This document shows, one piece after another, positions 34,195 to 63,713 of a stretch of DNA of 64,000 nt. Each line of letters begins with the position of its first letter. Positions within the stretch are counted from its first letter, which is position 1. The position numbers and the translations under genes are program-made. This DNA is from a virus: positions 1-64,000 of IMG/VR virus record IMGVR_UViG_3300047553_000365. The stretch is one strand, 5' to 3'. The notes under the pieces were generated by a model. The model was not told the DNA's origin. It did no database searches and saw nothing but the letters and a program-made list of their open reading frames with translations.

Positions 34195-34419
34195 TTACTT
34201 CTTCTTAATTCCATCTAGTTCCTGAACCACATACTCAAACATTTTAACTTGTTGGCTTTCATGTTCCAGATCCATATTGATATATTCAAGTAGTAATTCC
34301 TTATTCTCTCCTAGAGCCTTTTCAGTCTTACGAGAAATATGGGTAGTTACTATCATACCAGTAAGAACATTGGTAATAACGATTACAATCAGTAGTATAA
34401 TGTAGGAAGAGCTTTTCAT
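34195..34419 (-). CDS. Membrane-anchored coiled-coil protein
   Basis: 74 residues from ATG 34419. N-terminal hydrophobic helix (YIILLIVIVITNVLTGMIV) then an acidic coiled coil. ATG lies exactly 6 bases after a promoter -10 box, so the mRNA should be leaderless. Confidence 0.65.
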   Translation of the reverse strand: MKSSSYIILLIVIVITNVLTGMIVTTHISRKTEKALGENKELLLEYINMDLEHESQQVKMFEYVVQELDGIKKK

Positions 34420-34445
34420 ATGGATATTATGGGTCGGTTTTAATT
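34420..34445 (-). promoter_or_regulatory. Compact AATTAAAACC promoter
   Basis: AATTAAAACC, GACC, CATAAT, then 6 bases to ATG 34419. Confidence 0.75.
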
Positions 34446-34490
34446 TAACTTGTAGGAATATGACCAATTAAAACCATGTTTGTTATATTC

Positions 34491-34557
34491 GGTTTTAATT
34501 AGGAAGGTAGTAATAGGTTTTAATTTAATACTATATATGGTAGGGTTGGTTTTAATT
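34491..34557 (-). promoter_or_regulatory. Cluster of three AATTAAAACC motifs
   Basis: Motifs at 34548-34557, 34516-34525 and 34491-34500. The last has TATAAC 3 bases downstream; the others have no clear -10 box. With the promoter at 34436 this makes four copies in 122 bases. Confidence 0.6.
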
Positions 34558-34558
34558 A

Positions 34559-35020
34559 CTACTGCTTATAGTAGTAATTGGGTTCTGTTTCATCAATACC
34601 ATCATCAAAATATTCTTGGGCAAGTTCTTGAAGATCATTATCTAACTCTTCATAAGAGTAATCCTGATGAGGTTCAATATTAGTAGGCTTAACATCATCA
34701 TTCTCTGCTTCTCTTCTAGCAAGCCATTGATACATTTCCAATCTAGTAGGAAATTCGTATACTTCAAATCCTCTATTAAGAGCTAGTTGAAGAGTGTCCT
34801 TAAGATCATTACTGGCAACAATAGTAGTAATGGCATTTTCTTCCAAGTCTAGAACAGCATAGCTATATGTTTCGTTAGACTTTAGCACAATACCATCATA
34901 CAGAGTTATAACTAATCCGTAGAAGTTATTATAAGAAATATGAAGTATATGACAAGCATTTTCATCAATATCCTCTAAGGCTTTCACATTAACTTTCGAT
35001 TTTTCTAGAATTCTGATCAT
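34559..35020 (-). CDS. Hypothetical protein
   Basis: 153 residues, alpha/beta N-terminal domain and strongly acidic C terminus (EELDNDLQELAQEYFDDGID). Not recognised. Confidence 0.7.
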   Translation of the reverse strand: MIRILEKSKVNVKALEDIDENACHILHISYNNFYGLVITLYDGIVLKSNETYSYAVLDLEENAITTIVASNDLKDTLQLALNRGFEVYEFPTRLEMYQWLARREAENDDVKPTNIEPHQDYSYEELDNDLQELAQEYFDDGIDETEPNYYYKQ

Positions 35021-35228
35021 TTTACTATATTGTTAAAGTTATTATATTTTCAAAGTTATTATATATTCATGATGTAATGGCGATAGTTCCTAACCATATT
35101 ATTATAATGGCTATAACTATTTCTATTGTGAATATGTTTGAATTGATTTTCAATATAGTATAAAATTATTTACTATATTTTAAACCTTTTTCTTTATTCC
35201 CCATTATTTACCTATCTTCTGTATTTTA

Positions 35229-35268
35229 GTGTATTATGGTGTATTACGGTGTATTATTGTGTATTTCC
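35229..35268. repeat. Tandem 10-base repeats
   Basis: Four tandem units of GTGTATTAYG type. The surrounding 250 bases are AT-rich and noncoding, so this may be an iteron-like or promoter region. Confidence 0.55.
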
Positions 35269-35275
35269 TTGATAC

Positions 35276-35970: not shown

Positions 35971-35972
35971 GG

Positions 35973-36945: not shown

Positions 36946-36947
36946 GA

Positions 36948-37417: not shown

Positions 37418-37419
37418 AA

Positions 37420-37965: not shown

Positions 37966-37967
37966 AA

Positions 37968-38516: not shown

Positions 38517-38519
38517 GGT

Positions 38520-38678
38520 TTATTTTACTTCTTCAAACAAAGACTTTAGGTATGGCACAAGGTTCCCCCTATCATTTACAACAAAGATATATAACGGAGT
38601 TTGTTTCTTGCACTCATATACCTTATTCAAGGTAAGAGAACCCCTATTGGAAGTTATGCATTTATATTTCTTTTCCAT
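38520..38678 (-). CDS. KKKIKCI-family N-terminal domain only
   Basis: 52 residues (MEKKYKCITSNRGSLTLNKV ... YIFVVNDRGNLVPYLKS), equivalent to the first domain of paralogues A and B. First gene after a leaderless promoter. Either a stand-alone domain or a truncated copy. Confidence 0.6.
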   Translation of the reverse strand: MEKKYKCITSNRGSLTLNKVYECKKQTPLYIFVVNDRGNLVPYLKSLFEEVK

Positions 38679-38702
38679 GACTTATCATACTTCGGTTTTA
38701 AT
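38679..38702 (-). promoter_or_regulatory. Compact ATTAAAACC promoter
   Basis: ATTAAAACC, GAAG, TATGAT, then 5 bases to ATG 38678. Confidence 0.7.
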
Positions 38703-39213: not shown

Positions 39214-39214
39214 A

Positions 39215-39418
39215 TTATTTCCAGTTATTAACTATAAGAGCAATCATGGCAATAATTCCCCCAATTCCCAAGATAGCATGAGAAAAGATAGATATAGTAA
39301 GCAAGATAGATTCTACCTCTATATTTTTACCATTATCCATATATGCCTTTGTTTTAAATCCTAGCCAGTAGGCTATAAAGAATGTTAGACAGATTACAAA
39401 TATTTGTGCAGTATTCAT
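39215..39418 (-). CDS. Small membrane protein
   Basis: 67 residues, two hydrophobic helices. Leaderless start 6 bases after the -10 box. Confidence 0.7.
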   Translation of the reverse strand: MNTAQIFVICLTFFIAYWLGFKTKAYMDNGKNIEVESILLTISIFSHAILGIGGIIAMIALIVNNWK

Positions 39419-39443
39419 ATCTTAATTATACCCCGGTTTTAAT
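39419..39443 (-). promoter_or_regulatory. Compact ATTAAAACC promoter
   Basis: ATTAAAACC, GGGG, TATAAT, 6 bases, ATG 39418. Confidence 0.85.
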
Positions 39444-40595: not shown

Positions 40596-41084
40596 TTAAA
40601 GTTGTGTTAATAGAATTGTTTCCAATGCTTTAAAGATGGCAGGTAACTTAACATTGTTAATGTTGTCAACCATTTCCTTATCCATAATATCATTCTTGGC
40701 GGAAGTTTCCGTATAATGATATCCACCACGACCAATAACTTCCGCTGCCTTTTTTAGAGCATAGGCGGAAAGAATAAGGTCACAGAATTCCCAAAGCCTT
40801 TCTTTAATAGCAGGATTAAGTTCATAATCCTCCAAAAGAGCATCATACATACACATATTACGATTCTCTCTTACAAGATGATACTTGTCCCCTTCTTTAA
40901 AAACCCTATCCTTCTCAGCATAGTTTTTAAGATGATAATGACAGTTTCTATTACCCATCCAACCCAAGGCCCAATACCAATCGCATTGCCATTCAGGAAG
41001 AGTTAAATAGATACTCTCTTTAGTTTGTTTATTAACTCCAAAGAACACCCTTTCCTGTTTCCGTTGATAGTTAAGGTTTTGCAT
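40596..41084 (-). CDS. Hypothetical phage protein
   Basis: 162 residues with WQCDWYWALGWMGNRNCHYH, a tryptophan-rich pattern familiar from phage proteins of unknown role, and a C-terminal helical half. Leaderless start. Confidence 0.7.
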   Translation of the reverse strand: MQNLNYQRKQERVFFGVNKQTKESIYLTLPEWQCDWYWALGWMGNRNCHYHLKNYAEKDRVFKEGDKYHLVRENRNMCMYDALLEDYELNPAIKERLWEFCDLILSAYALKKAAEVIGRGGYHYTETSAKNDIMDKEMVDNINNVKLPAIFKALETILLTQL

Positions 41085-41110
41085 GTCTTAATTATACCCC
41101 GGTTTTAATT
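41085..41110 (-). promoter_or_regulatory. Compact AATTAAAACC promoter
   Basis: AATTAAAACC, GGGG, TATAAT, 6 bases, ATG 41084. Confidence 0.85.
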
Positions 41111-42388: not shown

Positions 42389-43351
42389 TTAAAGGTCAAG
42401 TAGATTTTGAATGTCTTGTTTGGTAAACACTCCCTGCCCAATGGTAACAGATTTAAGGGGTTTACAGTCGTCAAAATAATCGGTAATCATGATATGATAA
42501 ATAGCCTTCAGTTGGCTCTTACTAATCTTGGCACAACCAAACTTAAAATAGTTTCCCTTATCCTCTGCGGTATATCCATTGATAATCACCACAGGTTTAG
42601 GACGAGTATCATAGGATTCTTCATTAAGATTATCAGGATCAAGAGGATATCCCCCTGTAACACCATCAGGCCAGTTTGCATCCAATGTTACATAATAGCC
42701 ATACTTTTTAAAATATTGTTTTTTATGAGGGTTATTATTCGTTCCTGCACAATCGAAATGAATCTTAAATCCCGTCACAGAAGAAGTAGAAATATTCTTT
42801 TCTCCAAATCGAGACTTAATAAATTTACCAACAAGAGAGGATGCATATTCCACAGTCTCTTGCAGCTTAGGGTATTTTTCTTGTTTAGTATTCATAGGTT
42901 CGTCTTTCACAATTTCAAGGTAATAAAGATCATTATATCCGTGTGCTGAACTAGTAGATAAATGAGGGTTATCCCAAGTTTTATCCACAGTAGAAGAATA
43001 GCAGATAAAGATAACATCCTTAGCACTCCATCCCCATCCTCTAGGAATATACTTATATCCTTGTGGTAGAACAGGAGGATCACATTTAATTTTAGGATCA
43101 AGGTCTTTGGCTTTCATAGTATTAGGTTCGTCTTTTACAATTTCAAGGTAATAAACATCTTCCTGTCCATTAGCTCTCATAGAAAAATTATCATAGGACG
43201 GATTACACATCCAACGGTCAGTAGAGATAAAATAACAAAGATAATTAACATTTTCTGCCGTCCACCCCCATCCTCTAGGAATATACTTATATCCCTTCTT
43301 AAGAACAGGAGGGTTAAATTGAATTTTAGGATCAAGGTCTTTGGCTTTCAT
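42389..43351 (-). CDS. Duplicated N-domain early protein with KCI-family C-terminal part
   Basis: 320 residues. The unit KAKDLDPKIQFNPPVLKKGY ... YIPRGWGW ... YYLEIVKDEP occurs twice in tandem, followed by the family C-terminal part (SLVGKFIKSRFGEK ... YGYYVTLDANWPDG ... FKFGCAKISKSQLK). Looks like a duplication fused to the shared C-terminal domain. Confidence 0.7.
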   Translation of the reverse strand: MKAKDLDPKIQFNPPVLKKGYKYIPRGWGWTAENVNYLCYFISTDRWMCNPSYDNFSMRANGQEDVYYLEIVKDEPNTMKAKDLDPKIKCDPPVLPQGYKYIPRGWGWSAKDVIFICYSSTVDKTWDNPHLSTSSAHGYNDLYYLEIVKDEPMNTKQEKYPKLQETVEYASSLVGKFIKSRFGEKNISTSSVTGFKIHFDCAGTNNNPHKKQYFKKYGYYVTLDANWPDGVTGGYPLDPDNLNEESYDTRPKPVVIINGYTAEDKGNYFKFGCAKISKSQLKAIYHIMITDYFDDCKPLKSVTIGQGVFTKQDIQNLLDL

Positions 43352-43578
43352 ACTTCATCAATGCTTTGAATTTCAAACTCATCCATATATTCTTCCGAAT
43401 CCACAAAGGATTCTGAATGATTAACATTCAGAATGGTAATCTTATCACTATGAAAGACATTACCCTTAATGTTTTTAATATGTTCTTCCAAGGCAGTTTC
43501 ATCTCCATCAAATTCTACCTCAACAATATTATTCTGCCAAACTTTAATCAACTGGTCAATGTTTATTTCGTATTTCAT
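43348..43578 (-). CDS. Small acidic hypothetical protein
   Basis: 76 residues, acidic (DGDETALEEHIKN). Leaderless start; first gene of a chain including the duplicated protein. Confidence 0.65.
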   Translation of the reverse strand: MKYEINIDQLIKVWQNNIVEVEFDGDETALEEHIKNIKGNVFHSDKITILNVNHSESFVDSEEYMDEFEIQSIDEV

Positions 43579-43604
43579 GGGTATAGTATAGGTCGGTTTT
43601 AGTT
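43579..43604 (-). promoter_or_regulatory. Compact AACTAAAACC promoter
   Basis: AACTAAAACC, GACC, TATACT, 6 bases, ATG 43578. Confidence 0.8.
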
Positions 43605-44334: not shown

Positions 44335-44583
44335 TTATTGGGCTTTAAGATTTGCAAGGCGCATTTTAGCACGCACAATTTCAAGTTTAAGTTCCTTAAC
44401 CTTAAGGTTCTTCATAACTTCAATATAATCAGATTGCGGAGGAATCGCAGTAACAGAATCGGCAAACAGAATGTTTACCACACAGCAATTAAGGTTTGCT
44501 TGATTAACTGCCCTACGGCTAAGTTGCACAAGAGTTTCCTTCTTAAGAGGTTGAATGTCAATACTTTTGATTGGAGTCTTCAT
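44335..44583 (-). CDS. Hypothetical helical protein
   Basis: 82 residues from ATG 44583, placed 6 bases after the -10 box. C terminus is a basic coiled helix (LKVKELKLEIVRAKMRLANL). Confidence 0.65.
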   Translation of the reverse strand: MKTPIKSIDIQPLKKETLVQLSRRAVNQANLNCCVVNILFADSVTAIPPQSDYIEVMKNLKVKELKLEIVRAKMRLANLKAQ

Positions 44584-44609
44584 GCCCACAGTATATCCCG
44601 GTTTTAATT
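44584..44609 (-). promoter_or_regulatory. Compact AATTAAAACC promoter
   Basis: AATTAAAACC, GGGA, TATACT, 6 bases, ATG 44583. Confidence 0.85.
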
Positions 44610-45365: not shown

Positions 45366-45545
45366 TTAATAAGGATTGCTATTACTCTTGCAGAAGTTAC
45401 CAGCAACAATCTTACCATACTTCTTTTGAACAAACTTTCTGCCATTCAAAAGACTATGGGTAGTCATAAGCATACCACCCTTTGGTTTCTTGAACACTTC
45501 CGAACGCCATGACGACTTCAACGGTTTATGCGAATTGTTAATCAT
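45366..45545 (-). CDS. Small basic hypothetical protein
   Basis: 59 residues, very basic (KPLKSSWRSEVFKKPKGG, NGRKFVQKKYGKIV). Stop is followed by ATG of the SprT-like gene (TAATATG). Confidence 0.6.
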   Translation of the reverse strand: MINNSHKPLKSSWRSEVFKKPKGGMLMTTHSLLNGRKFVQKKYGKIVAGNFCKSNSNPY

Positions 45546-45729
45546 TGTTTTGGTTTTCTATTAGTTTACCTTCAGGGACTTCCCTATCAGTAAGAATTTT
45601 AGCAGCAGCCTCCACTACATCACGAATAGACTTGTTTTCAGTTCCGAAAACAGTATATTCATAAGTTTGAAAGCCATCACTAATTCTTATTACCCATTTG
45701 ATTGAGTAATCCTGATTAGGATTTTCCAT
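45538..45729 (-). CDS. Small hypothetical protein
   Basis: 63 residues, beta then acidic helix. Leaderless start. Confidence 0.65.
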   Translation of the reverse strand: MENPNQDYSIKWVIRISDGFQTYEYTVFGTENKSIRDVVEAAAKILTDREVPEGKLIENQNND

Positions 45730-45754
45730 AGGTGTATTATAGGGCGGTTTTAAT
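45730..45754 (-). promoter_or_regulatory. Compact ATTAAAACC promoter
   Basis: ATTAAAACC, GCCC, TATAAT, 6 bases, ATG 45729. Confidence 0.85.
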
Positions 45755-45956: not shown

Positions 45957-46471
45957 TCGAGAAGTAGAATTTTTCCCCCATATACACAGAGGTTATCATA
46001 GTGACTATCCACATATCTTTCATCAATAGCTCTAGGACATTTATAGATACTTTCATTATCTTCCCCAATAACCTTAACCTTTGGTTGAATGGTTAGAAAG
46101 TATTGATATTGCTTCCAACAATCAGTATCATAATGATAGACCATTGTGGGAATTCTATGAGACTTACTAGGAATAGATGAAACATTATAAGCCAACTTAA
46201 TAACTTGTCTATGTCCAATAAATGTCACCCCTGTAGAATGACAAGGATAAAATCCAAGTCTCTTAAACTTATTCTCATACTTCAAAAGCTTGTTATAAAG
46301 ATCACTCTCATAGATTTGAGGAGTATGTTTTTTAGGATTAGGAATAGGAGGATTAAGAATCTGCTTAATAAGCGGAGCCAACATTTTATCCATGAGTTCC
46401 ATTGCATCGACAATTTGTTTGTCCAGCTTCTTAATTTCTCCAAATCCTGCAACTTGTTTGAAATGTTTCAT
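45950..46471 (-). CDS. Hypothetical protein
   Basis: 173 residues from ATG 46471, overlapping the upstream stop. Helical start, beta-rich second half (CHSTGVTFIGHRQVIKLAYN). Unknown. Confidence 0.65.
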   Translation of the reverse strand: MKHFKQVAGFGEIKKLDKQIVDAMELMDKMLAPLIKQILNPPIPNPKKHTPQIYESDLYNKLLKYENKFKRLGFYPCHSTGVTFIGHRQVIKLAYNVSSIPSKSHRIPTMVYHYDTDCWKQYQYFLTIQPKVKVIGEDNESIYKCPRAIDERYVDSHYDNLCVYGGKILLLDW

Positions 46472-46905
46472 TTGATTGTAATCATTTGTGGCCAATCAGG
46501 TTTAATAGTTCCATTCTTACTATTAGCCAAGGTTATATGAAGTCCACGATATCTATCACCATCTTTAATTCCTAGAGCGGCTTTAATTCCTTCAATTTCT
46601 CTAGAATAGACTTTAAGATAATACATGATGAACCCTTTTTTGTATCCACCTTCGATGATATATGGGTCATACTCAAAGTCCACAGATTGTTTATGATATC
46701 CCTTTGCAGCTTGCCAGTCGATTTCATGTTTATTAACTACATTGTTATAGATTGTAATATGCGCTCCATGCATAGGAGTATTCATTTTAATCCAATACCT
46801 TTTGGAAATAAACCAGTAGTAATAGTTTACAAAATCCCTAGAGATATCCACCACAATCCTATTATGGTCTTTCTCTACTGAAATTTTACCACTAGCTTTC
46901 AACAT
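46468..46905 (-). CDS. Second 2H phosphoesterase-like protein
   Basis: 145 residues. HGAHITIYNN near residue 47 and RGLHITLANS near residue 120 are the paired H-x-T motifs of 2H phosphoesterases. It differs from the 1329 enzyme in spacing and length, so it is not a simple duplicate. Likely acts on a cyclic or 2'-5' phosphodiester. Confidence 0.7.
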   Translation of the reverse strand: MLKASGKISVEKDHNRIVVDISRDFVNYYYWFISKRYWIKMNTPMHGAHITIYNNVVNKHEIDWQAAKGYHKQSVDFEYDPYIIEGGYKKGFIMYYLKVYSREIEGIKAALGIKDGDRYRGLHITLANSKNGTIKPDWPQMITIK

Positions 46906-46930
46906 TCCTTATTGTAGTCCGGTTTTAATT
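46906..46930 (-). promoter_or_regulatory. Compact AATTAAAACC promoter
   Basis: AATTAAAACC, GGAC, TACAAT, 5 bases, ATG 46905. Confidence 0.8.
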
Positions 46931-47261
46931 AATCATAATCCCAAGGATCAATTTCTTTCACCCTACCTTTTTGGGGAATCTTATCAAACTGTTCAGTATT
47001 AATAAGATCACGGGTAGCGGCTCTATCTTTCTTTTTAGTATATCTTTTAACAATTTTAGAAAGTGCCGTGGATTGTTTGTTATTAGAAGTCCAAGTTTCT
47101 GCCAAATTGATAAGTTCTCTTGAAGTATAAGAATACTCTCCACCTTCAAAAAGGTTGTGTTGAATTTTGTAAAGATTTTTATTAACTTTACGAATGTTCA
47201 CACACCAAGAACAATTCTCCTTAACAAGTTTTATTGCCTCTTTAATATTCATTTGCGGCAT
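46929..47261 (-). CDS. Hypothetical basic protein
   Basis: 110 residues, basic (KIVKRYTKKKDRAATRD), helical. Overlaps the start side of the SprT-like gene end. Confidence 0.65.
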   Translation of the reverse strand: MPQMNIKEAIKLVKENCSWCVNIRKVNKNLYKIQHNLFEGGEYSYTSRELINLAETWTSNNKQSTALSKIVKRYTKKKDRAATRDLINTEQFDKIPQKGRVKEIDPWDYD

Positions 47262-47773: not shown

Positions 47774-47798
47774 GCCTAAAGTATACCCCGGTTTTAAT
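47774..47798 (-). promoter_or_regulatory. Compact ATTAAAACC promoter
   Basis: ATTAAAACC, GGGG, TATACT, 6 bases, ATG 47773. Confidence 0.85.
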
Positions 47799-49489: not shown

Positions 49490-49515
49490 GCCCAAAGTAT
49501 AGGTCGGTTTTAATT
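49490..49515 (-). promoter_or_regulatory. Compact AATTAAAACC promoter
   Basis: AATTAAAACC, GACC, TATACT, 6 bases, ATG 49489. Confidence 0.85.
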
Positions 49516-50502: not shown

Positions 50503-50835
50503 TTACATTTTCTGTAAAACTTCCCGAACCCTTTCCGCAGCTTCCAACTTAAAATTAACCCCATCTTCAAAATCAATAAACCAATCCAACAAAAACAATT
50601 CAACTGCTTGAAACATGGCCAAAGAATCAAGATCAGTAGAGAAACAACAAAAGCCACCATTACCATATTGCGCTCCAATTTCTGCCAATTTATGTTCGCA
50701 GTCTCCTCTACGAATAATGTAAACATTAGAAGGATCAACATCCCACAAAATCCCCAACAATTTCTTTAGGGCATCTTCTGGTTGATAATTTTTATATTGT
50801 TCAACAAAATTATTCATATTAGTTGTAGTTTTCAT
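50503..50835 (-). CDS. Hypothetical protein
   Basis: 110 residues, alpha/beta. Leaderless start. Resembles a SMI1/KNR4-like small domain only loosely. Confidence 0.65.
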   Translation of the reverse strand: MKTTTNMNNFVEQYKNYQPEDALKKLLGILWDVDPSNVYIIRRGDCEHKLAEIGAQYGNGGFCCFSTDLDSLAMFQAVELFLLDWFIDFEDGVNFKLEAAERVREVLQKM

Positions 50836-50861
50836 AGTCTTATTGTATCCCGGTTTTAATT
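50836..50861 (-). promoter_or_regulatory. Compact AATTAAAACC promoter
   Basis: AATTAAAACC, GGGA, TACAAT, 6 bases, ATG 50835. Confidence 0.85.
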
Positions 50862-51880: not shown

Positions 51881-52069
51881 TTACAGTTTGTTTAATTCTT
51901 TTCTTATTTTAGTGTTACAAGGAAAACAATGTTCACATGGAAAAAAACCCTTTGGAATAGTTTCCGTTACTGTTCCTTCCACCTTTAAACATTTACTATG
52001 TTCAGCATGATATACCCTAACACCCCAACGAGGAGTTGCAATTGCTTTTGGGTTATATTTTAATTTCAT
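51881..52069 (-). CDS. Small cysteine-containing protein
   Basis: 62 residues with FPCEHCFPCNT near the end and a His/Cys segment VYHAEHSKCLKVEG, possibly zinc-binding. Confidence 0.6.
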   Translation of the reverse strand: MKLKYNPKAIATPRWGVRVYHAEHSKCLKVEGTVTETIPKGFFPCEHCFPCNTKIRKELNKL

Positions 52070-52260
52070 AGTTTGTTAATTTCTTCAAACGCTTTCTCCC
52101 AATTGTTTGTATCCATTAGAACGGAGATAGCGAGTTGGTCATACTTACCCAAGGTCTTGAATTTGTCAACAAATTCCTTTGCCTTTTGTTCTGCAAGTTC
52201 CGCAGATTCATTTACAGTAAGTGTAAATAGATTAAGATTGTTAATAAGTTTCGGTGACAT
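52066..52260 (-). CDS. Small hypothetical protein
   Basis: 64 residues, helical (ESAELAEQKAKEFVDKFKTL). Leaderless start. Confidence 0.65.
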   Translation of the reverse strand: MSPKLINNLNLFTLTVNESAELAEQKAKEFVDKFKTLGKYDQLAISVLMDTNNWEKAFEEINKL

Positions 52261-52286
52261 GGTTATAGTATACCGTGGTTTTAATT
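52261..52286 (-). promoter_or_regulatory. Compact AATTAAAACC promoter
   Basis: AATTAAAACC, ACGG, TATACT, 6 bases, ATG 52260. Confidence 0.8.
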
Positions 52287-53243: not shown

Positions 53244-53738
53244 TTATTCAACATCTGTAGGAATTCCAAGAATGTTCTCTGCCTTAACATTGAAACATTC
53301 CTTAACTTCCTCAACTTCTCCCATAAGCTTCTTTGCATCACTACCAGTAAGATAGGAAGCAAACTGTTCCTTACTCACTTCTGATCCATCAACATAGTAA
53401 TGGGTCTTAGTCCTATTACCCACAGAAGGGTAAAGACGAATGTAATCCACTCCCTTATGTTCGATGATATAAGGGAATTGCTTCCATTGTCCCCAAGGAA
53501 GTGCGCCAACTTCTCCCCTAGTTCCTTCTTCAATTCCCTGCTTAACGCTGGAAAGGTTAGCATAATCAATACCAGCCCTTACAACACCTTCTGATACCTT
53601 TTCAAGAATAACATTCTTAAAAGAAGCAGCAGGTTTAGGTTGAGACTTCCAGCAAACCTTTACAAAGTTACCCTTTGCAGACAGAATCTTATTCTTAATT
53701 GCATCGGCACTCAATGACATATTAGTAGTATCGCTCAT
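53244..53738 (-). CDS. Hypothetical protein
   Basis: 164 residues; beta-rich core (NFVKVCWKSQPKPAASFKNV, VDYIRLYPS) with an acidic C terminus. Reads like a small abundant phage protein; no family assigned. Leaderless start. Confidence 0.7.
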   Translation of the reverse strand: MSDTTNMSLSADAIKNKILSAKGNFVKVCWKSQPKPAASFKNVILEKVSEGVVRAGIDYANLSSVKQGIEEGTRGEVGALPWGQWKQFPYIIEHKGVDYIRLYPSVGNRTKTHYYVDGSEVSKEQFASYLTGSDAKKLMGEVEEVKECFNVKAENILGIPTDVE

Positions 53739-53764
53739 ATCAGTATTATAGTTCGGTTTTAATT
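53739..53764 (-). promoter_or_regulatory. Compact AATTAAAACC promoter
   Basis: AATTAAAACC, GAAC, TATAAT, 6 bases, ATG 53738. Confidence 0.85.
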
Positions 53765-54017
53765 AGTAGTTTCTATTAGCATTCACAAGACCATCAAACC
53801 ATGATTGGTCTTCCATAGACTTAGTAGCATTAGGACAAGTCCTAGAGATAAAAACATTAATATACTTACTGGTAGTTTTACTATGTTTGTAACCAGTAAT
53901 AACAACTCCCCTGCCGGGAATAAATGCAGCAACAGGAGTAGAGTAAGAATAAAAGATAACGCTTCCATCATTAAGATGAATGTCCGTTTGATTAGGAGAA
54001 ACATTAATAACTTTCAT
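53763..54017 (-). CDS. Hypothetical phage protein
   Basis: 84 residues: VIFYSYSTPVAAFIPGRGVV and later TTSKYINVF match a small beta-sheet phage protein type. Unknown. Leaderless start. Confidence 0.7.
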   Translation of the reverse strand: MKVINVSPNQTDIHLNDGSVIFYSYSTPVAAFIPGRGVVITGYKHSKTTSKYINVFISRTCPNATKSMEDQSWFDGLVNANRNY

Positions 54018-54043
54018 GGCCCTATTGTATCCCGGTTTTAATT
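54018..54043 (-). promoter_or_regulatory. Compact AATTAAAACC promoter
   Basis: AATTAAAACC, GGGA, TACAAT, 6 bases, ATG 54017. Confidence 0.85.
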
Positions 54044-54560: not shown

Positions 54561-55094
54561 TTATTTATCCTCAATATTGAATTTGTCACGAAGATCATTC
54601 ATAAGTTCAACTGCTTCAAGGGTAGTATCCTCTCCACTTTTAATATACTCCAAGGCTCTAGCAACAACATTCCTTAGATTACTAACAGCCTTTTTAACAT
54701 GAGTATACTCCTCATTCGTGTCACAGATATAAAGAGAGATTTTTTCCAATTCCTTAAGACTTTCGATTTTTCCATACCAGATTTTTTCTATTGTTTCAAT
54801 AACCCTTTCTTTAACCCTTTCATTCCATCCTGCAACTCTATTAACCCTAGTGCTTTTAAGGACACCCTTATTAGTTCTAGTATTAACAGCACAGATACGA
54901 ATAGCATCTGCTCCACACTTACGAGAAACCCCATTAGTAATGGAGGAATAAACCAACACCATAATATCAGGATTCTTCTTACTAGTGTAGGAATAGACAA
55001 TCTCATTTCCTGACTTATCCTTTGTCCAACCTTTAGCGTGTTGCAAAAGGCCATCAAATTCTAATTCAGTAATGGTAACATAGGTCTTGCTCAT
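54561..55094 (-). CDS. Hypothetical protein
   Basis: 177 residues from ATG 55094. N-terminal beta domain with basic residues (TRTNKGVLKSTRVNRVAGW), then a helical C terminus. Unknown; leaderless start. Confidence 0.7.
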   Translation of the reverse strand: MSKTYVTITELEFDGLLQHAKGWTKDKSGNEIVYSYTSKKNPDIMVLVYSSITNGVSRKCGADAIRICAVNTRTNKGVLKSTRVNRVAGWNERVKERVIETIEKIWYGKIESLKELEKISLYICDTNEEYTHVKKAVSNLRNVVARALEYIKSGEDTTLEAVELMNDLRDKFNIEDK

Positions 55095-55120
55095 GCCCAA
55101 AGTATACCCCGGTTTTAATT
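55095..55120 (-). promoter_or_regulatory. Compact AATTAAAACC promoter
   Basis: AATTAAAACC, GGGG, TATACT, 6 bases, ATG 55094. Confidence 0.85.
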
Positions 55121-56558: not shown

Positions 56559-56775
56559 ACTTAACAATCAATGGATGAAGTTCTTTGCGAACAATTGTGC
56601 TATTATAATATCCACGAATCTTTTCTCCCTGAATATTACGAAAATGATTTGACCTAGCATCAGTGGATGCAATGATATTATCGAATAGAATACCAGCGTA
56701 TTCCAATCTAACACTATAATCTTTTCTAGTAATAAAATACCAGAACTTAGTAAGCAAGCGAACGATTAGTTTCAT
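56548..56775 (-). CDS. Hypothetical protein
   Basis: 75 residues, basic N terminus (IVRLLTKFWYFITRKDYSVR). Overlaps the upstream gene by 29 bases in another frame. Confidence 0.55.
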   Translation of the reverse strand: MKLIVRLLTKFWYFITRKDYSVRLEYAGILFDNIIASTDARSNHFRNIQGEKIRGYYNSTIVRKELHPLIVKYGS

Positions 56776-57487
56776 ATTTTTTATTGGTTTTTGTTTCGAC
56801 TACAAATCCAGAAGTATCTTTCTTAGCTTTACCCAATGCTACCAAACCAGCAACAACATTCTTGGGATCTTTAAACCTAAGATCATGTTTAGTGGCATCA
56901 ATAACTTTCTTACCCATATAAGTTTTGGGAAGCTTATCCTTAAACACCACAGCAACATTAGCCCCACAGCCAAGGACAATTGCAACAGCATTGTCATTAT
57001 TCTCTGCCTTGGAGAATGTAAGGTGATAATTTTTAGGAAGTTCCCCCATGATGTAGCGCATCATTCTCTTATCATTCTTAGTGTAATCATAGAATTGAGT
57101 AGTGGGAAAATGCTGCATAAGAGATTTACCTTGATACTTAATTGATTCCCATGCAATATCAGAAGTAAGGTTCAACCTAAAGCAAATCTTTTCTCCCCTA
57201 CGCTTTGCAGTCCTAACCTTATTACGGACTTCCTTATAGAGTTGAGCCATAAATGATTCACGATTTTCAAAGAACCATTTAGTTTTCTTAATCCGTGCTT
57301 GTTGCACAATATCGTATTGACCATAACCAGCAGTATTAAGGCAAGATTCCTTGCAGCCCTTACTTGCATTAGGACAAACATCATGACCAGACAAATCCGT
57401 AGGTGCAAGATGAAGACCAAATGTTCTCCATCCATACTTTTCACCTTTAACGATTTTAGTATTACTTCTGCTAATTAGCTTCGTCAT
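56747..57487 (-). CDS. gp88-like phage protein with Cys cluster
   Basis: 246 residues. DVCPNASKGCKESCLNTAG near residue 37 is a four-Cys cluster reminiscent of a radical or iron-binding site, followed by an alpha/beta domain (FRLNLTSDIAWE, FYDYTKNDKR). It resembles a widespread phage family (gp88-like) of unknown function. Leaderless start. Confidence 0.6.
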   Translation of the reverse strand: MTKLISRSNTKIVKGEKYGWRTFGLHLAPTDLSGHDVCPNASKGCKESCLNTAGYGQYDIVQQARIKKTKWFFENRESFMAQLYKEVRNKVRTAKRRGEKICFRLNLTSDIAWESIKYQGKSLMQHFPTTQFYDYTKNDKRMMRYIMGELPKNYHLTFSKAENNDNAVAIVLGCGANVAVVFKDKLPKTYMGKKVIDATKHDLRFKDPKNVVAGLVALGKAKKDTSGFVVETKTNKKYETNRSLAY

Positions 57488-57513
57488 GGCCCCATTATAA
57501 GTCGGTTTTAATT
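57488..57513 (-). promoter_or_regulatory. Compact AATTAAAACC promoter
   Basis: AATTAAAACC, GACT, TATAAT, 6 bases, ATG 57487. Confidence 0.85.
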
Positions 57514-58967: not shown

Positions 58968-60620
58968 TTAAACTTCGACCATGTTTAGAATCTCTTGGTC
59001 AAGAGCTTCTTCCATGAGTTCGTAAGTGGTCTTAATCTTGCCGCTAAGGAAAGAGATAACGGATGCAGAGTATCCACCGAAGTAATACACATTAAGCGCA
59101 TTCTTACCAGTTTCAAACTTCTCACCAGTTCCCTTACCATAGTAGTTACTTTGGAGATTCCAAAGAACGATTACAAATTCATCAACATATTCCTTAGAGA
59201 ATCCTGCATTTCTAAGAGTAGTGCGAGCAGCATCCACATTAGTCTTATTCAAACTAGCAGGATTAAACTCACTATCACTAATGCACAGAATTCCACGGGG
59301 GAAATCAGATTCGGGAGTTCCTTGTTTCTTCATCTTGCAGAACAAGTTAATAACACTTTGGAAGTTGGTTGAACCAACAAATCCTGACTTATCATTCTTC
59401 CACTTGGAAGTAGGAGAATGACCATTCCACTTGTGAAGCTTTGCATCAGAATTGAATTCAATCCAATGTCCTGCGAAAGTTCCAGTAAGGAATTCACTAA
59501 AGTAAAGAGCAAGAGCCTTACCAATATCATAGCAAGTAGACTTAGTTCCAGTAGCAATGCTACCCATAGAACCAGAAGTGTCACGCACCACGATTAGGTT
59601 GGTATAGTTTTCACCTGCCTTAGCCTTATCAACAAGAGTTTGAAACTGCTTATCAATAGTAAGTTCCTTGTTAGAATCCCCTTGCCAATGACCTTCAAAG
59701 AGTTCATGGACAAATCCAGTATACTTAACAGCAGTAGTCTCAGGCTTCTTAATCCATTCAGAATACTTCTCACTAAGACCTTGATTCTTAAGGAACTTGC
59801 TCTTAACAAGAATCGACAATGCACGACCATGAATCTTACTAAAGTCGATATCCTTAAACTTACCTTGTGAGATAAGCTTTTGCCAATCGTGTGCAGATCC
59901 ACTAGTCTTAAGCTTACGATACTTCTTGTAGTTAGCAGGAGAAGTCTTGCTTCCAAACAGTAGATAACAAATCCACTTAGCAATTTGATTATTAGACTGT
60001 GCATCCACAGTAGTAGCTTGAGACTTAGCCTTGATTTGTGGAAGATACTTCTTCACAAGATCGCAGGTCTTATCATTATTAAGTGCAGCCAGAATCAGTT
60101 CACCAAACTTATCCCAATCCAATTGACGGTTTTCCCATCCATTGTAACTAAGATCATATTGCAGCATGGTAAACACATCATGCCATGAACCCACAGAAAC
60201 AAACAGCAGAATGTTATTCCAGAAAGAATCAGGAGAAACAGTGTGCAGCCAAATCATACGCATGATAGCTTCATGCTTAAGTTCAGTTCCAAGTTGAGGA
60301 TTCTTAGTCTTACTACCATCAGGCAGACTAACAATACGAGGAATGGTTCTAAGGAACAAAGTAAACTTTACTGCCTTAAGAGGATCTTCACCCCAAAGAG
60401 TAGATGCATCAGCAGCAATCTCAGAAAACTTGCGGGGAGTCTTGTAATTACCAGCCTTAGTAAATTGATCGACTAGCGTAGAGCCTGAAGATTTAAACTT
60501 CAATGCTCCATTACCAGAACGAGTCTTATTCGATTCTGCATTGGCATTAGCAAGAAACTCATTAACTTTTTTACGAGTCACTTTACGCACGGTTTCGGCT
60601 TGTCTTTTATTCTCAAACAT
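58968..60620 (-). CDS. Ro60/TROVE-DUF2828-like protein with vWA domain
   Basis: 550 residues. A helical-repeat N-terminal two thirds (AVKFTLFLRTIPRI, LLFVSVGSWHDVFTML) is followed by a von Willebrand A domain with an intact MIDAS motif, VVRDTSGSMGS, and LCISDSEFNP later. This layout is shared by DUF2828 proteins and the TROVE ring protein Ro60, which binds Y RNAs and defective RNAs. The tRNA-like RNA array follows it and a Thg1-like gene precedes it. Which of the two families is closer needs a profile search. Confidence 0.75.
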   Translation of the reverse strand: MFENKRQAETVRKVTRKKVNEFLANANAESNKTRSGNGALKFKSSGSTLVDQFTKAGNYKTPRKFSEIAADASTLWGEDPLKAVKFTLFLRTIPRIVSLPDGSKTKNPQLGTELKHEAIMRMIWLHTVSPDSFWNNILLFVSVGSWHDVFTMLQYDLSYNGWENRQLDWDKFGELILAALNNDKTCDLVKKYLPQIKAKSQATTVDAQSNNQIAKWICYLLFGSKTSPANYKKYRKLKTSGSAHDWQKLISQGKFKDIDFSKIHGRALSILVKSKFLKNQGLSEKYSEWIKKPETTAVKYTGFVHELFEGHWQGDSNKELTIDKQFQTLVDKAKAGENYTNLIVVRDTSGSMGSIATGTKSTCYDIGKALALYFSEFLTGTFAGHWIEFNSDAKLHKWNGHSPTSKWKNDKSGFVGSTNFQSVINLFCKMKKQGTPESDFPRGILCISDSEFNPASLNKTNVDAARTTLRNAGFSKEYVDEFVIVLWNLQSNYYGKGTGEKFETGKNALNVYYFGGYSASVISFLSGKIKTTYELMEEALDQEILNMVEV

Positions 60621-60685
60621 ATTAGTATTTTAGTTTATTTTTTCGATTTGTCAATAGGCTTTTCGATTTTTTCTTTCGATGCCAC

Positions 60686-60705
60686 AGTATATTACGGTTT
60701 TAATT
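60686..60705 (-). promoter_or_regulatory. Compact AATTAAAACC promoter with long leader
   Basis: AATTAAAACC, GTAA, TATACT. Unlike most copies, no ATG follows at 6 bases; the Ro60-like ATG is 65 bases on, so this mRNA should have a 5' leader. Confidence 0.8.
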
Positions 60706-60717
60706 ACTATCTTATTT

Positions 60718-61458
60718 CTAATATAACCATAAATCTTCCTCACTTGTAATAGCACCAAACAAGAAATCATTAATAGAAAGGTAATCAGTTAGGTTATAAT
60801 TATCACCTTTAGTTGGCGACCACCATGACCCATTTCTTTGTTGGTCAGAGCATTCATCCTCCCAACTGTGTCCAATCTTTTTAAGCATTTCTTTTTGATC
60901 TGCTCTACCTTGTCCATGTAATTCTTTAGGAGAAAAATGAGACAGGCAAAACATAGAGATACTATTTCTTTCCCAATCCTTAACTCTCCATAGAAAGACA
61001 TTGGCAACATCTTCTTTCGGACATTGAAATGCTCTAGCATCAAACACAGCAGGATTATATGATCCGATATTAAATCTACCATTATCCCAATTCAAACATG
61101 TCCAAGTTTTATTGAAGTAGGCAGTCATTAGTGCAGCAGTAACAGATTCAATCTTATTCTGTCTACCACCGAACCATTGTTGAGTTTCAATACTACCACT
61201 ATCATCCAACACAAAAGTTACTTCATCACTTTGAACATACAATCCTTTACAGTTTTGCATTTCCTTAGCAACATACTTAGCAGAAATAAACATAGCATTG
61301 ATTAACTTCGTATCAAAAGGTTTATCGCAACCTTTAGTCCAAGTATGAAATGCCTTACCATCTACTCTAACAAGGATAGGAACCTTGGGAGTAAAGTAAT
61401 GTTCACTGATAGATTCGTAGTGTTTGATTCTATCACCTAATGTATCTTTGCTATTCAT
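60718..61458 (-). CDS. Thg1-like 3'-5' RNA polymerase (TLP)
   Basis: 246 residues. VPILVRVDGKAFHTWTKG and LYVQSDEVTFVLDD carry the two metal-binding carboxylate motifs (RxDGxxFHxFxK and YxQSDExxFV) of Thg1 family enzymes. Thg1 adds G-1 to tRNA-His; Thg1-like proteins repair 5'-truncated tRNAs by templated 3'-5' addition. The phage tRNA-His lacks encoded G-1, and a tRNA-like RNA lies just upstream of this gene. Ends in TAG followed two codons later by TAA. Confidence 0.88.
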   Translation of the reverse strand: MNSKDTLGDRIKHYESISEHYFTPKVPILVRVDGKAFHTWTKGCDKPFDTKLINAMFISAKYVAKEMQNCKGLYVQSDEVTFVLDDSGSIETQQWFGGRQNKIESVTAALMTAYFNKTWTCLNWDNGRFNIGSYNPAVFDARAFQCPKEDVANVFLWRVKDWERNSISMFCLSHFSPKELHGQGRADQKEMLKKIGHSWEDECSDQQRNGSWWSPTKGDNYNLTDYLSINDFLFGAITSEEDLWLY

Positions 61459-61495
61459 TTTTAATAATTTCTGCTACATTTATAATGGAAAAGGT

Positions 61496-61628
61496 GGGTG
61501 GGATATCCCAATAGCTTCATATACCTACTGAATCGAACAGTCCTTATATCATTATAGAAGAATGATATCGTGCAATTACTAGTATTTTTAAGCCCGTGAA
61601 CACTCAAGTATAGAGGCTATTGCCACCC
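61496..61628 (-). ncRNA. tRNA-like RNA with extended outer helix
   Basis: Reading minus: outer helix GGGTGG/CCACCC and CAATAGC/GCTATTG, then acceptor-like TATACTT/AGGTATA, an enlarged D region of about 37 bases, an 8-bp anticodon-like stem ATATCATT/AATGATAT with loop CTTCTAT (would be Arg TCT), AAGG, and a T arm ACTG-TTCGATT-CAGT. No ORF. The outer helix and oversize D region rule out an ordinary tRNA; a tRNA mimic or processing substrate is likely. Confidence 0.6.
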
Positions 61629-61639
61629 ATTAAAATTTA

Positions 61640-61981
61640 TTATTGAAGTTCATCAAGGTCTTGATATTCTTCCACGGTGTAGGTGAACTCAATATTGTCA
61701 GGATTAACATCCTTAAAGTAACGAATAGCCCTGTCTTGAATTCTAGTAAGAGCATCCAACACAATCACCCTGCGTTCAGGAACTTTAGGAAGTTGATAGC
61801 TGTCTGCCATAGCTCTAGCCATAGCAATCTTCAAACCATCTGCTTTATTAAAGCGATCATAGACGGTATTAAGAAGAGAGAAGCCATAACGAACTTCATC
61901 ACCATTACGAACTGCGATAACAACACCACGGGGTTGCCTAGTCTTTTCATCGCGAATGTATTCTTTAATTACGGTTTGCAT
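61640..61981 (-). CDS. Hypothetical protein
   Basis: 113 residues, basic N-terminal half with DEKTRQPRGVVIAVRNGDEV, helical C-terminal half (RAIRYFKDVNPDNIE). Unknown. First gene of the tRNA-like RNA, Thg1-like, Ro60-like stretch. Confidence 0.7.
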   Translation of the reverse strand: MQTVIKEYIRDEKTRQPRGVVIAVRNGDEVRYGFSLLNTVYDRFNKADGLKIAMARAMADSYQLPKVPERRVIVLDALTRIQDRAIRYFKDVNPDNIEFTYTVEEYQDLDELQ

Positions 61982-62009
61982 ATATGTATTTTGTTTTTGT
62001 TGTGACCAT

Positions 62010-62029
62010 AGTATAGGTCGGTTTTAATT
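62010..62029 (-). promoter_or_regulatory. Compact AATTAAAACC promoter with short leader
   Basis: AATTAAAACC, GACC, TATACT; ATG of the next gene is 28 bases on (61981), so this one is not leaderless. Confidence 0.8.
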
Positions 62030-63128
62030 ACAAATCTATTTTGTGAAATTGATAATATAATCCAATTTGTGCAGCAATCATAAGTATAAAGGCAGTAATA
62101 ACCCATCCAGTAGGAATTAGAAATGCTGTATCTCTATACATTGTCCAATCATGCGGTCTAAAATCTCTTCGCACAATTCTCTTGATATCAGGAATGATAT
62201 CATCATTCACGGGTTTATCAAGTAAAAGTGTTTGTAAATTTTGCTTTACGAGTTCAGACTTTGACCATCCGAAAACATAACACCATTCCGCAGGTTTAGT
62301 TGGTTCTCCACCATAGCAGATAACGATATCATTTTTCTTACCATTCTTCCAATATGCTTGTAGATTCTTAGCCTGTTCAATTCCATTAGGAAGTTTAACT
62401 AGAATAAGGTTAATATGTTTTTCCGCACCCAAGGCAGCATTCATCTTATCCCAATCCCAAATAGTCATTTCCGTATTACCTACTAGACGAGAAGAACAGA
62501 AGGTATTATTTTCAGGATATGAAAAGAGTCTTAACTTTCTTGCTTCCTGTTCAGAAATATCTTTATATGAATAAAGGTTTTCAGTTCCAATCAAAGGGTT
62601 TTGCCAACTGTTTGTTAATGTAACAGGATAGTCACAATACTCTGGATCGTCTTTAACATAGCTGAAGTAATCATTTCTATCACCAGAATCATAATCAGGT
62701 CTATGTCCCGGCTTGGAAACTATACCATGTTTCTTGGAGATTTGTTTAAAGAAGTTCTCTGATATACTAATATCTCCAATAGTAGTTTCAACCCACCACT
62801 TAGGATAATGCGTTTCATGTCTAGTCACCCACCTAGTATGAGTTTCAGTATTTCCCTCACTATCAGTTGTAGTGTATGTTTCAAGTTCCTCCCATTCTGC
62901 TTCCCATCTTGGAATATGAACAGCAGTTACAACCCTACCAGATAAAGTCTCTGTGTCAGATTTAACACTACATTCCGATACTCCAAGAACAAACATGATA
63001 AGGACTAGAGCAGTTCCAACACTAACACCAGCCTCTTTAATACTGATAGTTGAGAACTTCATCCATGAAATAACCCCCGCAATAACGGGGATTATCATTA
63101 GAACAAATAGCCAGTATCCGTAAGTCAT
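62028..63128 (-). CDS. Membrane protein with large soluble domain
   Basis: 366 residues. Hydrophobic helices at the N terminus (about 3-23 and 30-50) and one at the C terminus (about 340-360) flank a soluble domain of some 270 residues with WVTRHETHYPKWW and DYPVTLTNSWQNP. Paired with a LemA-like gene, in which context such proteins are often envelope components. Unknown function. Confidence 0.7.
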   Translation of the reverse strand: MTYGYWLFVLMIIPVIAGVISWMKFSTISIKEAGVSVGTALVLIMFVLGVSECSVKSDTETLSGRVVTAVHIPRWEAEWEELETYTTTDSEGNTETHTRWVTRHETHYPKWWVETTIGDISISENFFKQISKKHGIVSKPGHRPDYDSGDRNDYFSYVKDDPEYCDYPVTLTNSWQNPLIGTENLYSYKDISEQEARKLRLFSYPENNTFCSSRLVGNTEMTIWDWDKMNAALGAEKHINLILVKLPNGIEQAKNLQAYWKNGKKNDIVICYGGEPTKPAEWCYVFGWSKSELVKQNLQTLLLDKPVNDDIIPDIKRIVRRDFRPHDWTMYRDTAFLIPTGWVITAFILMIAAQIGLYYQFHKIDL

Positions 63129-63129
63129 A

Positions 63130-63687
63130 TTACTTTACCCATTCGGTGTTATCTTCTCCAGTCCTAAAGTTTTCCTTAGTTTCAGCAGAAGTTACAATAA
63201 CCACTTCAATCTCTTTCTTTCCAAGGAACTTCAAAATCATTCCAGTAGGAAACATATTAATCATATCATCTGCTTGTCGTTTAATTTCCAATAGACGAGT
63301 CTGGGAAAATTGCCAATCCTTACGACCTGCCACAACAATGTTTTGTAGGTTCTTAAGAGTTTCAATTCTCTGAATAGATGGCACAGCTTCCGTTACCATT
63401 CCAACAGTTACCAATGCACCATCCCCAGCAGTATTACCCCCACGCGCATTAGCATAACCAGTAATGATATTAGTTAGTGCTTCCACTTCCTTATCGGAAA
63501 CATTTGCAGCTTCCTTAATTTGTTTTCGGGTATTATCCAAAACATTTTGGTTATCTACCTGAGTTGCTTTTGCTAGATTTTCCAATCTGGTATAACTATT
63601 AAAGCTACCAATTACTGAAAATAGGAGAATGATTCCAAGTAGAAGCACACCCCCCACGACTGTTCCTGCGATTATTAGTTTATTCAT
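63130..63687 (-). CDS. LemA-like protein
   Basis: 185 residues. N-terminal transmembrane helix then SFNSYTRLENLAKATQVDNQ and later RIETLKNLQNIVVAGRKDWQ, the helical-bundle pattern of LemA proteins (YNxLVxLxxxVxxAWxxV). LemA function is unclear; here it pairs with the membrane protein downstream. Leaderless start. Confidence 0.7.
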   Translation of the reverse strand: MNKLIIAGTVVGGVLLLGIILLFSVIGSFNSYTRLENLAKATQVDNQNVLDNTRKQIKEAANVSDKEVEALTNIITGYANARGGNTAGDGALVTVGMVTEAVPSIQRIETLKNLQNIVVAGRKDWQFSQTRLLEIKRQADDMINMFPTGMILKFLGKKEIEVVIVTSAETKENFRTGEDNTEWVK

Positions 63688-63713
63688 ATGTGTATTGTAT
63701 TTCGGTTTTAATT
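63688..63713 (-). promoter_or_regulatory. Compact AATTAAAACC promoter
   Basis: AATTAAAACC, GAAA, TACAAT, 6 bases, ATG 63687. Confidence 0.85.

What the first reader, a model, noticed from the sequence alone, without database searches (positions are those of the whole stretch)
34195..63713. Compact promoter fused to the start codon: predicted leaderless regulon
About 20 minus-strand sites read (A)ATTAAAACC, 4 bases, TATANT or TACAAT. In most of them exactly 6 bases separate the -10 box from the ATG (15 of 19 listed sites with a -10 box and a downstream gene; 5 bases in two, longer leaders in two). With normal start-site spacing the A of ATG is +1, so these mRNAs should have no 5' leader. The AAAACC element sits directly upstream of the -10, unlike a -35 box, suggesting a phage-encoded or phage-modified recognition factor.
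Basis: seen in the sequence. Interest (0 to 1): 0.85.

Follow-up and report, generated by a model that had tools for sequence, protein, structure and literature searches.

The report
Phage promoters fused to start codons
A group of uncultured T4-related phages places promoters, one type with a new DNA signature, at the distance where the messenger RNA should begin right at the start codon, and its genes show no excess of the usual ribosome-binding signal.

Summary
AAAACC-N4-TANNNT-N6-ATG occurs 16 times in the window against 0.03 expected. The window is part of a 138,655-base fragment of a T4-superfamily myophage; two uncultured relatives (206 and 212 kb) carry 62 and 65 sites. The genome collection gave 17 single matches, about the number I expect by chance.

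T4-type late boxes (TAAATA starting at -11/-12) sit in the same register; host-type early promoters do so less strictly (13 of 61 at exactly 6 bases). Shine-Dalgarno tetramers are at background here, while nine other T4-type phages exceed it, two of them weakly. Orthologues mostly keep their class.

gp55, the T4 late sigma, is present in the relatives and explains the late class. The AAAACC factor was not found: no MotA, AsiA, GcrA or sigma other than gp55. No 5' end was mapped; leaderless transcription is inferred. New variant of a known kind.

The parts
34426..34444 (-). M promoter (box + CATAAT), N6 ATG of gene 34195-34419
   Evidence: gene ends in this list are, whose gene caller favoured starts behind such motifs; the ATG positions are read from the sequence
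38684..38702 (-). M promoter, N5 ATG of gene 38520-38678
39425..39443 (-). M promoter, N6 ATG of gene 39215-39418
41091..41109 (-). M promoter, N6 ATG of gene 40596-41084
43585..43603 (-). M promoter, N6 ATG of gene 43348-43578
44590..44608 (-). M promoter, N6 ATG of gene 44335-44583
45736..45754 (-). M promoter, N6 ATG of gene 45538-45729
46911..46929 (-). M promoter, N5 ATG of gene 46468-46905; M tag kept in G001 and G002 orthologues
47780..47798 (-). M promoter, N6 ATG of gene 47249-47773
49496..49514 (-). M promoter, N6 ATG of gene 48932-49489
50842..50860 (-). M promoter, N6 ATG of gene 50503-50835
52267..52285 (-). M promoter, N6 ATG of gene 52066-52260
53745..53763 (-). M promoter, N6 ATG of gene 53244-53738; M tag kept in both relatives
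54024..54042 (-). M promoter, N6 ATG of gene 53763-54017
55101..55119 (-). M promoter, N6 ATG of gene 54561-55094; M tag kept in both relatives
57494..57512 (-). M promoter, N6 ATG of gene 56747-57487; M tag kept in both relatives
60686..60704 (-). M box and -10 without ATG at N6; the nearest called gene starts at 60620 and has its own TTGACA-N16-TAAAAT-N6-ATG promoter
62010..62028 (-). M box and -10 with a 28-base leader to gene 61640-61981
63694..63712 (-). M promoter, N6 ATG of gene 63130-63687
29382..29409 (+). Early-type promoter TTGACA-N16-TATCAT, N6 ATG of gene 29416-29721; AAAACC also present in its spacer
29718..29745 (+). Early-type promoter TTGACA-N16-TACAGT, N6 ATG of gene 29752-30207; AAAACC also present in its spacer
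22352..22357 (+). Late-type TAAATA at -11 of gene 22363-22812
23918..23923 (+). Late-type TAAATA at -11 of gene 23929-24399
13455..13460 (+). Late-type TAAATA at -11 of gene 13466-13744
16686..16691 (+). Late-type TAAATA at -11 of gene 16697-17155
18555..18560 (-). Late-type TAAATA at -11 of gene 18199-18549

Best explanation
The sites are promoters of a phage regulon in a clade of T4-superfamily myophages. Each has a sigma70-type -10 (TAYANT at -12 to -7) and, in place of a -35, a box TAATTAAAACCG at about -27 to -16. RNA polymerase starts at the A of the ATG, so the first gene of each unit is read from a leaderless mRNA. Many genes further along follow the previous stop within a few bases and could be translated by coupling. 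The box is read by a factor that is encoded or recruited by the phage and acts next to sigma region 2. By gene content and map position this is the middle (pre-replicative) class. The same phages place gp55-type late boxes in the same register, and host-type early promoters in or near it. Shown: the motif, its spacing, its conservation, the background level of Shine-Dalgarno tetramers, gp55 in relatives. Inferred: the start at +1, the factor, the timing, the coupling.
For: 16 motif-to-ATG matches in the window vs 0.03 expected. Whole record: AAAACCN4TAN3T 33/67/74 sites in G000/G001/G002 vs 2.6/4.0/4.9 in 20 Markov sequences each; with ATTAAAACC and N6 ATG 19/43/50 vs 0. ATG at 6 bases in 16/28, 36/62, 46/65 sites. 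-1 pyrimidine 0.92/0.88/0.96 in M genes (24, 42, 49) vs 0.72/0.64/0.70 in genes without a promoter call. TAAATA at -11/-12 of 22/51/48 genes vs a mean of 0.19-0.26 per position further upstream; the T4 late box lies about one helical turn upstream of the start (PMC2988020, passage). SD tetramers at control level in G000, G001, G002 and G017, above control in nine other T4-type phages and in outgroup G018. Orthologues keep class: M with M 10/14, 11/14, 21/28, with L in none (one M-E pair); L with L 14/18, 13/21, 33/45, one switch to M. gp55 in G002 (phrog_234 E 3.9e-26) and G001. Genome collection: 17 single matches, close to the ~15 I estimate by hand from base counts.
Against: No RNA data. 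The factor is not identified. 'Middle' rests on gene content and map position. The early class is loose: of 61 TTGACA-type sites upstream of called genes, 13 have exactly 6 bases to the start, 31 have 5-9, and the rest range from 2 to 62. L and E genes show little or no excess of -1 pyrimidine (L 0.71/0.80/0.68, E 0.75/0.56/0.64). Sites without ATG at N6 remain (12 of 28, 26 of 62, 19 of 65), though some have 5, 7, 8 or 9 bases. Half to two thirds of genes (155 of 229, 152 of 283, 161 of 311) have none of these promoters; of these 41, 38 and 36 lie more than 35 bases behind the previous gene and 6, 18 and 13 follow a strand switch or record end, so coupling does not explain them. Two of the nine comparison phages exceed the SD control only weakly (S-SM2 0.19 vs 0.11, AG-345-F15 0.15 vs 0.04), and Leptolyngbya phage Lbo-JY46, outside the clade, has no SD excess either (9 vs 13 of 150).
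Confidence: 0.75

Rival explanations
1. The -10 boxes are real but initiation falls 1-4 bases before or after the A, giving mixed very short leaders rather than strictly leaderless mRNAs.
For: Some box sites have 5, 7, 8 or 9 bases to ATG; early-type gaps are spread; late boxes also occur at -12 and -13.
Against: 6 bases is the clear mode for the AAAACC class (22 of 26, 31 of 51, 44 of 55 called genes with the box within 60 bases), and the -1 pyrimidine preference is strongest there.
Confidence: 0.15
2. AAAACC is an operator for a phage repressor or a shut-off factor laid over ordinary -10 promoters, not an activator element.
For: The box overlaps the spacer, where repressors often bind (general knowledge); a few sites have a full TTGACA plus the box.
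Against: The G001 and G002 logos carry no information at -35, so the -10 alone would probably be weak without help.
Confidence: 0.12
3. A host alternative sigma or activator reads the box, and the phage has adopted a host promoter type.
For: No phage factor was found.
Against: 17 matches in the genome collection, one per stretch. The host may be missing from that collection, and only one exact form with N6 ATG was scanned.
Confidence: 0.12
4. Ordinary extended -10 promoters; the box is a sequence preference of the host RNA polymerase.
For: [quoted passage not shown]
Against: No TG at -15/-14; positions -16 to -14 read mostly G-R-R. A 12-base box is far more specific than an extended -10.
Confidence: 0.06

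Closest known systems
T4 three-class transcription (host sigma70 early, MotA/AsiA middle, gp55/gp33/gp45 late)
   Same: Late box TATAAATA-like with gp55 in the relatives; an extra element replaces the -35 in another class; early-type TTGACA promoters.
   Different: No MotA or AsiA; the box is at about -27 to -16, not near -30 (T4 position recalled); box and late promoters abut the ATG; no Shine-Dalgarno excess.
Thermus phage phiYS40 middle/late leaderless transcripts
   Same: Most middle/late mRNAs lack a leader, with shifts in IF2/IF3 (review PMC3594737, passages).
   Different: Different phage and host; here a T4 late box and the AAAACC box. The original paper was not held, so its promoter sequences were not compared.
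Thermus phage P23-45 gp39 system
   Same: Middle and late promoters that do not depend on -35 (PMC7403470, passage).
   Different: Extended -10, not a 12-base box; gp39 was not searched for here.
Sigma-2 activators GcrA, RbpA, Crl
   Same: Act beside sigma region 2 and the -10 (PMC7403470, passages), as the box position would suggest.
   Different: GcrA reads methylated DNA; no GcrA match in G000, G001, G002, G017. RbpA and Crl not searched.
Pelagibacter phage HTVC008M
   Same: 11 genes with TAAATA at -11.
   Different: Shine-Dalgarno tetramers in 94 of 190 genes against 10 in control; no AAAACC class.

Membership tests
T4 superfamily of phages | Homologous terminase, tail sheath and other T4 core genes | tested here: met
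   TerL 30% over 95% to cyanophages; sheath 41-43% over about a third; rIIA/rIIB, RNA ligase; DNA polymerase, MCP, portal, gp46/47 in G001/G002. All matched named phages are below 60% identity.
T4 late promoters | TATAAATA-type box about one turn upstream of the start | tested here: met
   TAAATA at -11/-12 of 22/51/48 genes; the RNA start itself was not mapped
T4 late promoters | gp55 sigma factor | tested here: met
   In G001 and G002; a weak sigma region 2 match in a 156-residue frame of G017; none in the G000 fragment
T4 late promoters | gp33 co-activator and gp45 clamp | tested here: inconclusive
   T4 and HTVC008M queries gave no match better than E 0.019 in the rows shown (blastp; phmmer, first 30 rows)
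T4 middle promoters | MotA activator | tested here: not met
   PF09114 absent from G000, G001, G002 at E <= 1; found in T4 control
T4 middle promoters | AsiA co-activator | tested here: not met
   PF09010 absent from G000, G001, G002 at E <= 1; found in T4 control
T4 middle promoters | MotA box centred near -30 (recalled) | tested here: not met
   Box is at about -27 to -16
Leaderless mRNA | -10 box directly upstream of start codon | tested here: met
Leaderless mRNA | Mapped 5' end at the start codon | not testable with these tools
   no RNA data
Extended -10 promoters | TG at -15/-14 | tested here: not met
   mostly G-R-R at -16 to -14
Far-T4 phages | Capsid/terminase phylogeny with Far-T4 clades | not tested
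   Passages of PMC4360716 seen; no tree made

The most novel reading that the evidence does not exclude
A whole lineage of T4-type phages has dropped the Shine-Dalgarno signal and runs its early, middle and late transcription largely from promoters fused to start codons, with a new phage factor that appropriates sigma70 through a 12-base box in the spacer instead of at -35.
Probability: 0.4. Interest if true: 0.82.

Novelty: new variant of a known kind. Interest (0 to 1): 0.63.

Why it matters
T4 middle transcription is the textbook case of sigma appropriation. Here a related lineage appears to keep the late system but to use another middle element, and to place promoters so that promoter position sets the start codon. 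If true, a new way to redirect sigma70 from within the spacer is open to test, and gene starts in such genomes can be read from promoters (in one G001 gene my caller missed the start that the motif marks). The 117 box sites with ATG at N6 in three records are a ready set for that test.

Tried and rejected
Searching for the AAAACC factor. MotA and AsiA: absent. Sigma70 region 2: only weak matches below cut-off, in G001 and G002 at the gp55 gene and in G017 in a frame of similar size (for G000 alone). Sigma70 region 4: weak matches below cut-off in G000 and G002, and one in T4, judged noise. GcrA: absent. A second gp55-like protein exists in G001 (24657-25001) but not in G002, which has as many boxes, so it is not the general factor. 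Ten proteins, mostly with early-type promoters, were scanned in Pfam and PHROGs; 95 conserved G002 proteins were scanned as a set, where only the first 25 of 31 Pfam and 25 of 63 PHROG families are shown. One of these, phrog_624 'DNA binding protein', I followed: it is the G000 gene 73122-73613 and its G001 and G002 orthologues, and its G002 member is a pyrimidine-dimer glycosylase by Pfam (E 2.7e-6), so a repair enzyme rather than a promoter factor. The families not shown were not examined. A 76-residue protein 97% identical between G001 and G002 has an acidic sequence and no significant match in G000. A basic early-promoter protein (alignment A3) was folded from three sequences (pLDDT 75); Foldseek gave no match at E <= 0.001 in PDB or BFVD. 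One structure job and one fold search were left unused.

Translation side. Ribosomal protein bS21 has no match in G000, G001, G002. General stop-codon recoding was not pursued: TAG ends 13/229, 11/283, 12/311 called genes.

Host. Not found. The Ro-like protein's best named relative is in Leptolyngbya phage Lbo-JY46 (46%), which also lacks a Shine-Dalgarno excess; but that phage shows neither promoter class and shares few genes, so a cyanobacterial host is a lead only. Bacteroidota were judged unlikely because the -10 is TANNNT with TTGACA 16 bases upstream, not TAnnTTTG (recalled consensus).

Literature. Searches in the held library listed no report of leaderless T4-type late promoters or of an AAAACC middle box; only listings and the passages named below were seen, and the library lacks most subscription journals. 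The phiYS40 paper and one cyanophage transcriptome paper were not held. Passages only: PMC2988020, PMC3594737, PMC5312081, PMC7403470, PMC3037559, PMC4360716. A reference entry only: PMC9004378. PMC12340547: start of abstract in a listing and one reference entry.

Full report
What was checked. In 34195-63713 there are 19 minus-strand sites with AAAACC, 4 bases and a -10-like hexamer: 15 with 6 bases to ATG, 2 with 5, 2 longer. AAAACCNNNNTANNNTNNNNNNATG gives 16 matches in the window against 0.03 expected from shuffles. A loose pattern with 3 mismatches is not enriched (45 vs 38.6), so the claim rests on the tight form.

The record. The window is the first 64,000 bases of a 138,655-base virus record. 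Its terminase is 30% identical to cyanophage terminases and its sheath 41-43% to those of HTVC008M, Ochrobactrum phage OC and others over about a third of its length; it encodes rIIA, rIIB, RNA ligases and baseplate wedge proteins. All matched named phages are below 60% identity in those two searches. DNA polymerase, portal, capsid and gp55, which two relatives have, were not found in it, so it is probably a fragment.

Relatives. An exact scan of IMG/VR with ATTAAAACCGNNNTAYANTNNNNNNATG returned 42 stretches, on 20 contigs by my count; the two largest are G001 (206,590 bases) and G002 (211,724 bases). The looser ATTAAAACCNNNNTANNNT occurs 62 and 65 times there, with none for the reversed pattern. 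The exact pattern in the genome collection (84,980 species) gave 17 stretches with one match each; from base counts alone I estimate by hand about 15 by chance. So the exact form is a phage feature.

The promoter. In the sites with ATG at N6 (22, 44 and 51 in G000, G001, G002) the consensus is about TAATTAAAACCG-R-R-N-TAYAAT-N5-Y-ATG, without information at -35 in G001 and G002. In many sites the stop codon of the preceding gene lies in the TAATTAA part (stop ending at -1 or +3 relative to AAAACC in 15 of 33, 27 of 67 and 32 of 74 sites). Among called genes with box and -10 within 60 bases, 22 of 26, 31 of 51 and 44 of 55 have exactly 6 bases; the caller used no motif there. In one G001 gene it chose an internal start although the motif marks an ATG at N6 upstream, so the counts are not complete. 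The base before ATG is a pyrimidine in 92%, 88% and 96% of these genes, against 72%, 64% and 70% in genes with no promoter call (genes with starts other than ATG, short upstream sequence or an unassigned -10 were left out). In G001 three sites also carry TTGACA or TTGTCA 16 bases upstream of the -10, so the box lies inside a normal spacer.

Two more classes. TAAATA begins 11 or 12 bases before the start codon in 22 of 229, 51 of 283 and 48 of 311 genes. The T4 late box lies about one helical turn upstream of the start (PMC2988020, passage), so the A of ATG would again be +1. Early-type TTGACA-N16-18-TANNNT sites are looser. Upstream of called genes there are 17, 22 and 22 within 90 bases; 3, 4 and 6 have exactly 6 bases to the start, 6, 11 and 14 have 5-9, the others range from 2 to 62. 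A search limited to gaps of 4-12 and including -35 variants found 8, 16 and 15 genes. In G000, late-type sites lie only at 13-24 kb and 95-135 kb and box sites on the minus strand only at 34-93 kb.

Controls. Nine other T4-type phages were treated with the same script: T4 (20-48 kb), HTVC008M (whole), and stretches of Ochrobactrum OC, Mosig, Milchi, AG-345-L05, S-SM2, AG-345-F15 and B23. Shine-Dalgarno tetramers exceed the control window in each (0.15-0.63 vs 0.00-0.11), weakly in S-SM2 (0.19 vs 0.11) and AG-345-F15 (0.15 vs 0.04), and are at control level in G000, G001, G002 (0.09, 0.05, 0.07 vs 0.08). TAAATA sits mostly 16-45 bases upstream in the others; HTVC008M is mixed, with 11 genes at -11. 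None has the AAAACC class in the stretch examined. Leptolyngbya phage Lbo-JY46, not of this clade, has no Shine-Dalgarno excess and neither class, so the lack of Shine-Dalgarno is not peculiar to the clade. Of 13 terminase relatives fetched, two are G001 and G002 themselves, two were too short, and nine were analysed: eight close ones (69-80% identity) have TAAATA most often at -11 or -12 and no clear Shine-Dalgarno excess, with only 9-19 genes each; the distant one (38%, G018) has Shine-Dalgarno tetramers in 82 vs 22 of 258 genes and neither the late register nor the box. G017 (126 kb) has 33 genes with TAAATA at -11, Shine-Dalgarno 18 vs 16 of 158, and five box promoters with A in place of G at -16.

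Conservation. Reciprocal best hits: 89, 102 and 177 pairs, 79 genes in all three. With an M tag that allows leaders up to 30 bases, M pairs with M in 10 of 14, 11 of 14 and 21 of 28 pairs and with L in none (one M-E pair); L with L in 14 of 18, 13 of 21 and 33 of 45, with one L-M pair.

Factors. gp55: G002 43030-43482 (phrog_234 E 3.9e-26) and G001 177897-178343. gp33 and gp45: no convincing match. MotA, AsiA, GcrA: none. Sigma region 2 gave only weak matches, at gp55 in G001 and G002 and in a similar frame of G017. A protein named 'DNA binding' by PHROGs proved to be related to pyrimidine-dimer glycosylases. The AAAACC factor is therefore open. Its position next to the -10 suggests an activator that works through sigma region 2, as GcrA, RbpA and Crl do (PMC7403470, passages); this is inference.

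Translation. 93 of 155, 81 of 152 and 88 of 161 genes without a promoter tag overlap or start within 5 bases of the preceding gene, which fits coupling; 41, 38 and 36 lie more than 35 bases away and are unexplained. phiYS40 is the nearest precedent for leaderless middle and late phage mRNAs (PMC3594737, passages). The AR9 paper calls phage transcripts 'often leaderless' in passing (PMC5312081, passage).

Verdict. What is missing is RNA evidence and the factor.

Noticed in passing
window 2757-2830 (+); L075:3941-4013; L094:16159-16232: A tRNA with anticodon CUA, called tRNA-Pyl by ARAGORN, is present in all three phages among 25, 23 and 22 tRNA genes in all; an amber suppressor is possible although TAG is a rare stop.
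   Followed up: partly
G000 72180-73613 (L011:8180-9613, -); also G001 94879-95979, G002 29406-31598: A gene ending in TAG is followed in the same frame by a long open frame (313, 216, 446 codons). The three pairs are not shown to be related, and the G002 second gene has its own early-type promoter, so plain adjacency is as likely as amber readthrough.
   Followed up: partly
window 46468-46905 (-): 145-residue protein with relatives in G001, G002 and G017, two H-x-T motifs and a weak Pfam match to 2H phosphoesterases (E 0.039, below cut-off); possibly a counter-defence enzyme like T4 Acb1 (recalled). No PDB match.
   Followed up: partly
window 58968-60620 (-): Ro-like RNA-binding protein, 76% identical in the clade, with 46% identity to a Leptolyngbya phage protein but about 25% to the other 14 phages listed.
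   Followed up: yes
window 60718-61458, 20182-21687 (-): tRNA-His guanylyltransferase and tRNA nucleotidyltransferase, with RNA ligases elsewhere: a possible tRNA repair set beside the large tRNA array.
   Followed up: no
G001 24657-25001 (L075:4657-5001, +): A second, shorter gp55-like sigma protein (phrog_234 E 2.8e-12), not found in G002.
   Followed up: partly
G002 172-178 kb (L093): A run of box promoters, most with -10 TAAGAT and A at -16, a possible sub-family.
   Followed up: no
G002 195217-195447 (L094:15217-15447, -); G001 25821-26051: A 76-residue acidic protein 97% identical between the two phages, with both TTGACA and the box in G001.
   Followed up: partly
G000 73122-73613 (L011:9122-9613, -): Pyrimidine-dimer glycosylase-like protein with a box promoter in G000, G001 and G002.
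   Followed up: yes
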